DNA from: Alphaproteobacteria bacterium
GTDB taxonomy: Bacteria > Pseudomonadota > Alphaproteobacteria > UBA9219
NCBI GenBank assembly: GCA_028866275.1
Contig: JAGWIK010000002.1
Coordinates: 1 to 64,000 of the forward strand
DNA length: 64,000 nt
Direction: 5' to 3'
Shown here: positions 18,932-22,425 of the stretch, in pieces
Position numbering within the stretch: the stretch's first letter is position 1
Layout: every line of letters starts with the position of its first letter
Program-made: the position numbers and the translations under genes
The notes under the pieces: generated by a model
The model's database searches: none
Told to the model about the DNA's origin: nothing
Seen by the model: the letters and a program-made list of their open reading frames with translations, nothing else

Positions 18932-20359
18932 ATGTCATCGGCCTCCAAACCTGTCGTTACCCGTTTCGCCCCGTCGCCCACCGGTTTTTTGCATATCGGC
19001 AGCGCGCGCACGGCCTTGTTTTGCTGGCTGTTCGCCAAGCATCATGGCGGCAAGAATTTGCTGCGTATCGAAGACACCGACCGTGCCCGTTCGACGCCGG
19101 AATCCATCGATACGATTCTGGACGGGCTGACCTGGCTGGGCCTTGACTGGGATAATAAGGACTATAACGGCCGCAGCTATTATTCGCAGTATGAACAGCG
19201 CGACCGCCATGCCGACGTCGCGCGCCAGATGGTCGCAAACGGCAAGGCCTATTATTGCTATGCCACGCCGGAAGAGCTGGACGCCATGCGGGCCGAGCAA
19301 AAGGAAAAAGGCCTGCCGCAGCGTTATGACGGGCGGTGGCGCGCCCGTCCGGCCAGCGACGCGCCCGCCGGCATCAAACCGGTTATTCGCCTGAAGGCGC
19401 CGCAGGATGGCGAAACCACCGTGCATGACGCGGTGATGGGCCGCGTGACGGTGCAGAACAGCCAGCTGGATGACATGATCTTGCTGCGCAGCGACGGCAC
19501 GCCGACTTATATGCATGCCGTGGTCGTGGACGATCACGATATGGAGGTCACGCATGTTATCCGCGGCGACGATCATCTGACCAATACTTTCCGGCAGGTG
19601 CAGATTTATAAAGCGATGGGGTGGGATGTGCCGACTTTTGCCCATTTGCCGATGATTTTGGGGCCGGACGGCGCGAAATTGTCGAAACGCCACGGCGCGC
19701 CCGCGGTCGGCGATTACCGCGACCGCGGTTATCTGCCCGAAGCGATATGCAATTATTTGCTGCGTTTATGCTGGTCGCACGGCGATGACGAGATTATCTC
19801 GCGCGAACAGGCCGTGGAATGGTTCGATCTGGACGGTATCGGCAAATCGCCGGCGCGGTTCGACTTTGCCAAATTGGGCAGCGTCAATGCGCATTATATC
19901 AAACAGGCCGACGATGCGCGTTTGGCGAAACTGGCCGAGCCGTTTATCGCGCGGGCGCTGGGCCGTCCTTTGACGATGGCGCAGATGGATTTGCTGGCGC
20001 GCGCCATGACCGACCTGAAGCCGCGCGCGCAGACAATCGCCGACATTGCCGACATGGCGGTGTTTTATTTCCATGACGGCGCGTTGCCGATGGATGACAA
20101 GGCGCAGAAGCTTCTGACGCCGGATGCGAAAGCCATTCTGGCCGATATGGCCGCGCGTATGGAAAAACTGGACGATTTCACCGCGCATGCCGTCGAAGAA
20201 GCGTGCCGTGCCTATGCCGAAGAAAAAGGCATCAAGCTGGGCGCCGTCGCGCAACCGCTGCGCGCGGCCCTGTCCGGTTCGACCGTATCGCCGCCGATTT
20301 TCGGCGTCGCGGCGATTTTGGGGCGCGACGAGACGTTGCGGCGGGTTAAATCAGCCTAA
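18932..20359 (+). CDS. gltX: Glutamyl-tRNA synthetase
   Basis: VTRFAPSPTGFLHIGSARTALFCWLFAKHHGGKNLLRIEDTDRARST; KLSKRHGA. Confidence 0.97.
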   Translation: MSSASKPVVTRFAPSPTGFLHIGSARTALFCWLFAKHHGGKNLLRIEDTDRARSTPESIDTILDGLTWLGLDWDNKDYNGRSYYSQYEQRDRHADVARQMVANGKAYYCYATPEELDAMRAEQKEKGLPQRYDGRWRARPASDAPAGIKPVIRLKAPQDGETTVHDAVMGRVTVQNSQLDDMILLRSDGTPTYMHAVVVDDHDMEVTHVIRGDDHLTNTFRQVQIYKAMGWDVPTFAHLPMILGPDGAKLSKRHGAPAVGDYRDRGYLPEAICNYLLRLCWSHGDDEIISREQAVEWFDLDGIGKSPARFDFAKLGSVNAHYIKQADDARLAKLAEPFIARALGRPLTMAQMDLLARAMTDLKPRAQTIADIADMAVFYFHDGALPMDDKAQKLLTPDAKAILADMAARMEKLDDFTAHAVEEACRAYAEEKGIKLGAVAQPLRAALSGSTVSPPIFGVAAILGRDETLRRVKSA

Positions 20360-22425
20360 ATCTTCGCGCGCCGTTCGCCGGATTTGCGCGCCACATGCAG
20401 GGTGGTTTTTGCCGTTTTGGTTCGGCGGGACAGGCTGTGCGACGGCCGTGCCGGCGCATGCGGCGCCGGTTTGATTTTGCGCGCGGTCGAAACGCGCGCG
20501 ACCGGCGCGGCCAAGGCCGGATCGAAAATGACAGAGAGCGATTTAAGCCCGCGTTTCCAGGCATCCATGACGATGGCGGCGGCCTGTTCGCGTCCTCTGG
20601 CCAAAGGCAAGGACGCCGTTATGCCGGTATCGCCCGATATGAAAGGCTGAACTGCGGCGGCCATGCGGATGCGGGCGTCGATGCCGGTTTCATTGCCGCT
20701 GCTGAACAGCACGCGGTGGCGCAAATGAACCAGTTTGCAATTGCGCGCCGTGCCGTGGCCATAGCAATGGCGGTCGGCGGCGGCGATATCGGCATCGTCG
20801 ATGCCCAGATGGGCCAGCAGATCAAAACGCGGCGCGTCGAGCAGTCGCGCCGGAATTTTCAAAATATCGCGGCAATAATCGAGGCCGACAATCCACGGCG
20901 TCACGGCCAATCGGACGCTGTCGACATGGGGTAAATAGGATTCGATGCGTTCGAAGGCGGCGGCATCGATGCCGCGGGCGCGCAGCGTTTTGGCATTGAT
21001 GGCGGGGGCGTGCGCCAGAGATTTCGCGCCCGCAATGTGCCGCGCCGTTTCCTTGGCCGTGCCGCGCGGGTAACCGAGGCGGGACAGGGCTTCGGCCGCC
21101 GCCGGATGCAAGGCGCTGTGCAGCAGGCCGACATCGCCTTCGGTCATTACGGTCAACGACCGCATGGGTTCGCATCCCTGCGATGCGCTTTGCATCAGCA
21201 TCGCCAGCGCGGGCGAGGGGGTAAAGTCGGTGACTTGCACGGCGCGCAGGCCGAAAGCATGGGCGCGCGTGACGGCGTCGTCCCAGCGTTGCTGCGCTTC
21301 CGCCGCCAAGGTCAGGTCGGGGCAGTTTTTCAGCGACAAAGCGACGGGGCGTACCGATAGTTTTTCGTAATCGTTGCTGTCGCCGTGAACGGCGCGGCGG
21401 CGGTTGCGCAACGCGCGCAGGATGTCGTCGCTGCCGGCGGTAAAGGCCGCGCCCGGCCCGCGCAGGGCCGCCATTTCGGCGGAGGCGGCATAGCATTCCG
21501 CCGTGACGAGGGCCGCCAGCGATGCCGCCAGCGCGCGGCCGGATTCGCTGTCATAGCCAAGCCCGAGCGCCAGCAGCAACGGCGCGACATTGGCCAGCGT
21601 GACGGTCGCGGGCGCATCATGCAGGTCGAGCAAGACGGTCAGGATGCGCGCGGCCTGCTTCAGCGCGTCGATATTGATGCTGCCGTCGTTATGGCGCATC
21701 GGCAGAACGTCGATGGCGGCTGTGGCGGGCGTGCTTTGCGCGGCCCAGTCGCGGGCGATGTCGGTCAGGGTCAGGTCGACGCGGCTTTCCTGTTTGGCCG
21801 GCAGGACAAACAGTTTTTTCCACACCGGCGCGTGCGTGGCGTCCGCTTTGTTCATCGCCGCGTCTATGTCGGCATTGGACAGCGCGGTTTGGCGCGTGGC
21901 GGACGAACGCGACGGGCGCGATGCCGGCGTTTCCGGCATGTCATAGGCCCATGCCGCGCCCCAGTCGCGCAAAAGGGCCGGCGCGACGGCGATATGGCGT
22001 TGCATCAACGCGTAGCGTGCCTCGTCGTAAAAAGCGCGGGCGTGTTTTTCGCTGCTGAACAGATGCAGCGACCATGCCTTTGCCGCCGCCGCGCCGACCA
22101 CGCGGTCGACGATCTGGCGCGTGTCGCTTTCGGCGGCGCGGCGCGGGCCGCGGCTGCGGTGTTTCCACAGCCAGCTGGGCACAGTGTTTTCTTCGACGGC
22201 GTCGATATCGGCGGGAATATCGGCGCGCGCGGCCTGCGCCATTGTTTCGATGGCCAGCGTGCCCCATGTCGCCGGCGCGGTCAGAGCCGGAGATGTTTCG
22301 TCGCCGAAGCCGTCCGCATATTGAAAAGGAATGTCGGCATAGGCGTCATGATCTACGCGCGTGGTCAGGCGTGCAAAAGGCGGCAGGAATGCGGGTTTCT
22401 TAACGGATTTGATCATGAGGGACAT
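20356..22425 (-). CDS. NrdJ-like protein: shortened, probably catalytically inactive adenosylcobalamin-dependent ribonucleotide reductase homologue
   Basis: 689 aa. Blocks matching class II RNR as remembered: YADIPF (N-term), VEENTVPSWLWKHRS, DTRQIVDRVVGA...ARAFYDEARYALM, GLGYDSESGRALAASLAALVTAECYAASAEMAALRGP, LRALRNRRRAVHGDSNDYEKLSVRPVAL, NCPD, SRLGYP, APAINAKTLRARGI, GLDYCRDIL, RIRMAAAVQPFISG. The central catalytic region and NPCSE-type finger loop are absent. Confidence 0.8.
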   Translation of the reverse strand: MSLMIKSVKKPAFLPPFARLTTRVDHDAYADIPFQYADGFGDETSPALTAPATWGTLAIETMAQAARADIPADIDAVEENTVPSWLWKHRSRGPRRAAESDTRQIVDRVVGAAAAKAWSLHLFSSEKHARAFYDEARYALMQRHIAVAPALLRDWGAAWAYDMPETPASRPSRSSATRQTALSNADIDAAMNKADATHAPVWKKLFVLPAKQESRVDLTLTDIARDWAAQSTPATAAIDVLPMRHNDGSINIDALKQAARILTVLLDLHDAPATVTLANVAPLLLALGLGYDSESGRALAASLAALVTAECYAASAEMAALRGPGAAFTAGSDDILRALRNRRRAVHGDSNDYEKLSVRPVALSLKNCPDLTLAAEAQQRWDDAVTRAHAFGLRAVQVTDFTPSPALAMLMQSASQGCEPMRSLTVMTEGDVGLLHSALHPAAAEALSRLGYPRGTAKETARHIAGAKSLAHAPAINAKTLRARGIDAAAFERIESYLPHVDSVRLAVTPWIVGLDYCRDILKIPARLLDAPRFDLLAHLGIDDADIAAADRHCYGHGTARNCKLVHLRHRVLFSSGNETGIDARIRMAAAVQPFISGDTGITASLPLARGREQAAAIVMDAWKRGLKSLSVIFDPALAAPVARVSTARKIKPAPHAPARPSHSLSRRTKTAKTTLHVARKSGERRAKI

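What the first reader, a model, noticed from the sequence alone, without database searches (positions are those of the whole stretch)
20356..22425. Shortened class II ribonucleotide reductase (NrdJ) homologue without its catalytic core: a candidate pseudoenzyme
Seen in sequence: one 689-aa ORF with no internal stops. Its blocks read in the same order as alphaproteobacterial NrdJ (usually about 1200 aa): N-terminal YADIPF; VEENTVPSWLWKHRS; DTRQIVDRVVGA...ARAFYDEARYALM; WAYD; GLGYDSESGRALAASLAALVTAECYAASAEMAALRGP; LRALRNRRRAVHGDSNDYEKLSVRPVAL; NCPD; APAINAKTLRARGI; GLDYCRDIL; FDLLAHLGIDDADIAAA; RIRMAAAVQPFISG. Established knowledge: active NrdJ has PHACF and NPCSE-type cysteines, an N-x-C-x-E finger loop, a PTGTIG phosphate-binding motif, a C-terminal CANPCGR motif and often a TSCPD domain. 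Here the span between WAYD and the DAPATVTLANVAPLLLALGLGYDSE block is a roughly 100-aa unrelated linker instead of about 450 aa. PTGTIG reads as TPSPAL, CANPCGR as SSGNETG, and TSCPD is missing. Inference: it cannot reduce ribonucleotides alone. It may be a regulatory or structural partner of a genuine RNR, or a repurposed B12/nucleotide-binding scaffold. Both ends and the frame are preserved with strongly conserved surface blocks, which argues against a fresh pseudogene. I know of no description of such a protein.
Basis: partly seen in the sequence, partly recalled or inferred. Interest (0 to 1): 0.85.

Follow-up and report, generated by a model that had tools for sequence, protein, structure and literature searches.

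The report
Dead class II ribonucleotide reductase descendant
A gene that once made a DNA-building-block enzyme has lost its whole catalytic centre in an order of Alphaproteobacteria, yet is still kept intact by selection and still carries the control signals of the working enzyme, so the cell appears to use it for something other than catalysis.

Summary
ORF 20356-22425(-), 689 aa, is homologous to alphaproteobacterial NrdJ by sequence, profile and predicted fold. It lacks the radical and redox cysteines, the finger loop, the phosphate loop and the TSCPD domain. It is not a decaying pseudogene: about 80 homologues share the form, 31 of 34 genomes of the order match, and dN/dS is 0.035-0.18 in close pairs. 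It is not a paralogue either. It occupies the ancestral nrdJ site (beside aat, DUF2155 and NDUFA12) in relatives, so nrdJ died in place. Sister families keep longer dead forms, mostly still with TSCPD. At least two, probably five, lineages lost NrdJ catalysis independently at this site; 87 other orthologues surveyed have every catalytic motif intact. Dead-NrdJ genomes carry another intact RNR. New here: the dead gene keeps a conserved NrdR-box pair (31-bp offset) plus a DnaA box. In the window these are the best such pair and the only perfect DnaA box in 64 kb, and the genome's own nrdA promoter has both. Best reading: a non-catalytic protein still tied to dNTP supply. Its molecular partner is unknown. 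Precedent: the enzymatically dead R1 of betaherpesviruses.

The parts
20356..22425 (-). pseudo-nrdJ: 689-aa NrdJ-derived protein without catalytic core
22000..22284 (-). N-terminal NrdJ domain (PF08471), residues 48-142, with the invariant EENTVPSWLW motif
21835..21936 (-). residues 164-197: stretch without clear counterpart, where about 230 NrdJ residues (PHACF cysteine and the N-terminal half of the barrel) are missing
21598..21834 (-). residues 198-276: diverged, collinear barrel remnant with the N-P-C-S-E finger loop and the second redox cysteine region excised
20986..21597 (-). residues 277-480: retained C-terminal barrel half (PF02867 positions 288-460); PTGTIG reads PSPALA
20359..20499 (-). 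residues 643-689: predicted disordered, basic tail in place of the TSCPD domain
22473..22488 (-). NrdR box 1 (ACCCTATATTTTGTGG, 14/16)
22442..22457 (-). NrdR box 2 (ACACATAATCTTGTGG, 13/16), offset 31 bp from box 1
22438..22446 (+). perfect DnaA box TTATCCACA overlapping NrdR box 2; the only one in the window
22598..24106 (-). upstream neighbour dnaB (replicative helicase); not a conserved neighbour in relatives
18932..20359 (+). downstream convergent neighbour gltX (glutamyl-tRNA synthetase)

Best explanation
It is the direct descendant, at the ancestral nrdJ locus, of the alphaproteobacterial B12-dependent ribonucleotide reductase. After class I NrdAB took over dNTP synthesis, and while adenosylcobalamin use was lost, the old gene lost in steps its radical/redox cysteines, finger loop, phosphate loop and, in this family, the TSCPD domain. 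It kept the N-terminal domain and half the barrel as a folded, selected protein (these steps are shown by sequence; their order in time is inferred). It is still under the switches of dNTP synthesis, NrdR boxes plus a DnaA box as at nrdA (shown as conserved sites; binding is inferred). The most likely role is non-catalytic: a protein made with NrdAB when dNTPs run short, acting by protein-protein contact to tune or organise dNTP supply (inference; the partner is untested).
For: Homology and fold; AlphaFold2 pLDDT 86.2, pTM 0.86 without templates, best PDB match R. sphaeroides NrdJ, E 1e-35, TM 0.71. Dead, with none half-dead: all 87 intact orthologues surveyed have every motif. Selection: 54 invariant columns among 44 proteins at 38-60% identity to the window protein; dN/dS 0.035-0.18 in close pairs. 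In-situ origin: same accB-accC-aat / DUF2155-NDUFA12 / nrdJ site and orientation as intact nrdJ. Replacement RNR: intact NrdA (PRK09102, 1012 bits, NLCSE) and NrdB in the same genome. Regulation: the 31-bp NrdR pair at 22442-22488 is the best in the window; of 19 such hits in 470 kb of context DNA, 18 lie at this promoter in the window and 15 relatives, boxes conserved (1.34 and 1.27 bits per site) and spacer not (0.53). One perfect DnaA box in 64 kb, at this promoter, shared by most relatives. The nrdA promoters carry the same elements. NrdR in 31/34 genomes. The 31-bp offset equals that in the NrdR-DNA structure (PMC9110341).
Against: No partner, ligand or phenotype is known. The NrdR boxes could be inherited from nrdJ and maintained only for suitable expression of a function unrelated to dNTPs. 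Four of five f3 members lack a recognisable NrdR pair. G010 and G032 in the same family have no copy, so it is dispensable in some lineages. The canonical RNR dimer and effector region is deleted, so any contact with NrdA would have to use another surface.
Confidence: 0.5

Rival explanations
1. Pseudoenzyme repurposed for a role unrelated to dNTP supply (for example a structural or binding protein using the N-terminal domain and basic tail), with inherited promoter sites.
For: The gene sits among NADH-dehydrogenase-related, aat and acetyl-CoA carboxylase genes, not RNR genes; a basic disordered tail replaces TSCPD.
Against: NrdR boxes are conserved while the spacer is not, and a DnaA box, rare at intact nrdJ (7 of 65), is found in most f1 promoters, which points to continuing selection for control by dNTP and replication state.
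Confidence: 0.28
2. Nucleotide- or corrinoid-binding sensor or sink without catalysis.
For: RNR fold; half the barrel is retained.
Against: The phosphate loop and the whole effector-site half are gone; no PF01923 or PF02572 adenosyltransferase over the cut-off in the 22 good genomes of the order.
Confidence: 0.1
3. Decaying pseudogene.
For: Deletions relative to NrdJ; lineage-specific loss in a few genomes.
Against: Purifying selection, invariant residues, open frames in nearly all relatives, conserved promoter, confident fold.
Confidence: 0.03
4. Still an active reductase with a rewired active site.
For: None beyond the fold.
Against: No radical cysteine, no redox pair, no phosphate loop; an intact NrdAB is present.
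Confidence: 0.02

Closest known systems
Alphaproteobacterial NrdJ (PRK07562; R. sphaeroides NrdJ, PDB 7b9p)
   Same: Same ancestral locus and gene order, PF08471 and C-terminal PF02867 regions, fold of the retained parts.
   Different: About 380 residues of core reduced to about 113; no catalytic motifs; no TSCPD domain; found in genomes without the searched cobalamin adenosyltransferases.
Betaherpesvirus R1 homologues (HCMV UL45, MCMV M45, HHV-6B RNR)
   Same: RNR large-subunit homologues that lost enzymatic activity and were kept for other functions (PMC11772975, PMC5469499).
   Different: Viral, act on host signalling; here bacterial, from class II NrdJ, with NrdR/DnaA-type promoter sites.
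NCBIfam PRK06948 'ribonucleotide reductase-like protein'
   Same: A catalogued RNR-like family of about 600 aa with weak similarity to the C-terminal part.
   Different: Very weak match (40 bits against cut-off 906); its catalytic state was not examined here.
NrdJa/NrdJb split class II RNR (PMC5704485)
   Same: NrdJ separated from its C-terminal domain.
   Different: There the parts together are an enzyme; here no separate TSCPD gene was found in the window genome and the core itself is gone.

Membership tests
Class II ribonucleotide reductase NrdJ (active enzyme) | Overall NrdJ homology and domain order | tested here: met
Class II ribonucleotide reductase NrdJ (active enzyme) | Radical cysteine finger loop N-x-C-x-E | tested here: not met
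   absent; 87 intact orthologues all have it
Class II ribonucleotide reductase NrdJ (active enzyme) | Redox cysteines (PHACF, D-x-x-A-C) | tested here: not met
Class II ribonucleotide reductase NrdJ (active enzyme) | Substrate phosphate loop PTGTIG | tested here: not met
   PSPALA
Class II ribonucleotide reductase NrdJ (active enzyme) | NCBIfam equivalog cut-off PRK07562 | tested here: not met
   296 against 1737 bits
Class II ribonucleotide reductase NrdJ (active enzyme) | Adenosylcobalamin supply in the genome | tested here: not met
   PF01923 and PF02572 absent from this genome and all 22 good genomes of the order; other ATR families not searched
RNR-derived pseudoenzyme | Catalytic residues lost while frame and other residues are conserved by selection | tested here: met
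RNR-derived pseudoenzyme | No enzymatic activity in vitro | not testable with these tools
   inferred from motifs only
NrdR regulon member | Two NrdR boxes at about three helical turns upstream of the gene | tested here: met
   spacing as in PMC9110341
NrdR regulon member | NrdR gene in the genome | tested here: met
   G000:C73:90110-90553
NrdR regulon member | Measured NrdR binding or derepression | not testable with these tools
   needs experiment

The most novel reading that the evidence does not exclude
Dead NrdJ has become a non-catalytic regulatory or organising subunit of the class I RNR, whose NrdA here has no ATP-cone hit. Alphaproteobacteria have repeatedly turned the old enzyme into such a subunit after another RNR took over.
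Probability: 0.25. Interest if true: 0.88.

Novelty: new variant of a known kind. Interest (0 to 1): 0.72.

Why it matters
Pseudoenzymes of RNR appear in the literature searched only for herpesviruses; no bacterial case was found. A whole bacterial order keeps one, at the original locus in most relatives, with control signals of dNTP synthesis, and other lineages show the same step independently, including a nearly full-length protein with few motif changes. This gives a natural series for how an essential enzyme becomes a non-catalytic protein, and a direct test of whether RNR proteins have a second function independent of catalysis. It also shows that PF02867/PF08471 hits alone overstate B12-dependent metabolism in such genomes.

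Tried and rejected
Paralogue or horizontally gained copy: rejected for the order because the gene occupies the ancestral nrdJ site in relatives; in the window itself it has moved beside dnaB/gltX, which are not conserved neighbours. Functional link with dnaB: rejected for that reason. TSCPD split to another gene: none in the window genome and only one weak stand-alone hit among f1 genomes. One ancient dead lineage for all cases: a joint tree groups all dead forms (0.967), but dead branches are long, and placed one by one L093 is sister to intact L112 (1.0), so long-branch attraction is likely; L095/L096 fall with intact L160/L149 (0.975 for that clade). B12 loss as general cause: fits the order and G114, but G064, G138, G226 and G215 keep PF01923. 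Literature on 7b9p and on TSCPD with RNR: nothing found.

Full report
Observation. The ORF at 20356-22425 (minus strand, 689 aa, no internal stop) is as described. Pfam finds Ribonuc_red_2_N at residues 48-142 and the C-terminal part of the RNR barrel at 277-480. The best NCBIfam model is alphaproteobacterial NrdJ PRK07562, at 296 bits against a cut-off of 1737. The nearest solved structure is R. sphaeroides NrdJ 7b9p, aligned as 46-163 to 39-167 and 277-635 to 547-913. A profile-profile comparison with intact NrdJ gives E 1e-119 over 637 columns. It shows that residues ~198-276 are a collinear remnant of the barrel with the finger loop cut out; only ~164-197 lacks a counterpart.

A conserved family. 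A search of 5.8 billion proteins returned about 80 proteins of the same reduced form, most of them 666-772 aa and 39-60% identical, where named mostly 'hypothetical protein' from alphaproteobacterial MAGs. In 44 of them 54 columns are invariant, including most of EENTVPSWLW and residues of R-x-x-RN-x-x-R...G-x-x-x-DYE. 31 of 34 genomes of the window's order have a match, one of them only a fragment. The two sister families of the order carry longer dead forms of 811-1089 aa, most still with a well conserved TSCPD domain. dN/dS is 0.035 (L034/L035), 0.11 (L026/L027), 0.16 (L095/L096) and 0.18 (L019/L020).

Structure. AlphaFold2 with the family alignment and no templates gives pLDDT 86.2 and pTM 0.86; residues 643-689 are disordered. 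The best Foldseek PDB hits are the R. sphaeroides NrdJ entries (E 1e-35, TM 0.71 by query), then other RNRs.

Catalytic death, in place, more than once. Among nrdJ orthologues fetched across the class, 87 have PHACF, NPCSE, the second redox cysteine and PTGTIG all intact, with no partial cases. Dead forms are the window's order plus four further lineages: G114 (NSFAE in place of NPCSE in a 959-aa protein), G215, G138/G226 and G064. Intact nrdJ in many families lies beside accB-accC-aat and divergent DUF2155/NDUFA12-like genes; the dead genes of most of the order and of all four other lineages lie at the same site. These neighbour names (accB, accC, aat, DUF2155, NDUFA12) are my reading of the sequences, not a family search. 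The order's dead proteins form one clade (support 1.0 when the other dead forms are left out). L093 is sister to an intact enzyme of its own family (1.0), and L095/L096 group with intact L160/L149 (0.975), so catalysis was lost independently at least twice and probably five times. The five dead-NrdJ genomes outside the order carry another PF02867 RNR (radical-site motif present in those read), and most genomes of the order do too (draft gaps may explain the rest). The window genome has an intact class I NrdA (616 aa, NLCSE, no ATP-cone hit) with NrdB next to it. The order lacks both searched families of cobalamin adenosyltransferase, but three of the four other dead lineages keep one.

Upstream of the gene lie two NrdR boxes 31 bp apart, 22473-22488 and 22442-22457, scoring 27/32: the best such pair in the 64-kb window. 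In 470 kb of context DNA 19 pairs score 22 or more, and 18 of them lie at this promoter, in the window and 15 relatives (two are second registers of the same site). Registered on the boxes, the boxes carry 1.34 and 1.27 bits per site, the spacer 0.53. The offset equals that of the NrdR-DNA structure, where conserved G-C pairs are at 9/18 and 40/49 (PMC9110341). The only perfect DnaA box of the window, 22438-22446, overlaps box 2; 16-17 of the 21 perfect DnaA boxes in 406 kb of relatives' DNA are at the same promoter, but only 7 of 65 intact nrdJ promoters have one. The genome's own nrdA promoter has an NrdR pair (22/32) and a DnaA box; across the order 12 of 20 nrdA upstream regions have the pair and 9 of 20 a DnaA box. 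NrdR is present in 31 of 34 genomes. DnaA control of nrdAB is established in E. coli and proposed in Caulobacter (PMC8203912).

Mechanism. Shown: descent from NrdJ, loss of every catalytic element, purifying selection, in-situ position in relatives, co-occurrence with intact RNR, shared control sites. Inferred: that NrdR and DnaA bind there, that the protein is made together with NrdAB, and that it acts by protein contact in dNTP supply. The canonical RNR dimer and effector region is in the deleted half (established knowledge of RNR structure), so contact with NrdA would need another surface. The rival that deserves most weight is a function unrelated to dNTPs with inherited promoter sites.

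Novelty. Enzymatically dead RNR large subunits are known in betaherpesviruses (PMC11772975, PMC5469499). In the papers searched I found no bacterial case. The library is open-access only, so absence there is weak evidence. I file it as a new variant of a known kind (a pseudoenzyme), not as a member of class II RNR, because defining catalytic features were tested and not met.

Limits. Taxon names of the genomes are hidden; one relative is JAFALY010000038.1, 'Alphaproteobacteria bacterium isolate CP_BE_RX_49'. Many genomes are drafts in many contigs. dN/dS is pairwise Nei-Gojobori with high dS in some pairs. NrdR and DnaA sites are consensus matches supported by conservation, not by binding data.

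Noticed in passing
L093 (G114), 959-aa ORF: Nearly full-length NrdJ with PHSHSCF and NSFAE in place of NPCSE, sister to intact L112: an early stage of catalytic death caught in one genome.
   Followed up: partly
L033-L037, L030, L032, L153: C-terminal part: The TSCPD region (RRKGYTQ...GEIFIDMHKEGA...) stays very conserved in dead NrdJ forms, suggesting it has a function apart from ribonucleotide reduction.
   Followed up: partly
L095/L096 (G138/G226, 3.4-Mb genomes in 1 and 3 contigs): Independent dead NrdJ of 956-967 aa with a strong NrdR pair (26/32); possibly from cultivated strains, so a good experimental system.
   Followed up: partly
G031 C173, C12, C31, C192: A 928-aa PF02867 protein and several extra NrdB copies in one genome of the family, possibly contamination or phage-borne.
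   Followed up: no
window 11078-13696: An open frame of 873 codons with a start reading like Hsp70/DnaK (MYLGIDLGSSNSVVAG...), longer than usual.
   Followed up: no
window 16746-20359 with L072 and L069: In some f1 genomes the pseudo-nrdJ gene lies next to gltX and a ComEC-like gene; in the window it has left its ancestral site yet carries its NrdR/DnaA promoter with it.
   Followed up: partly
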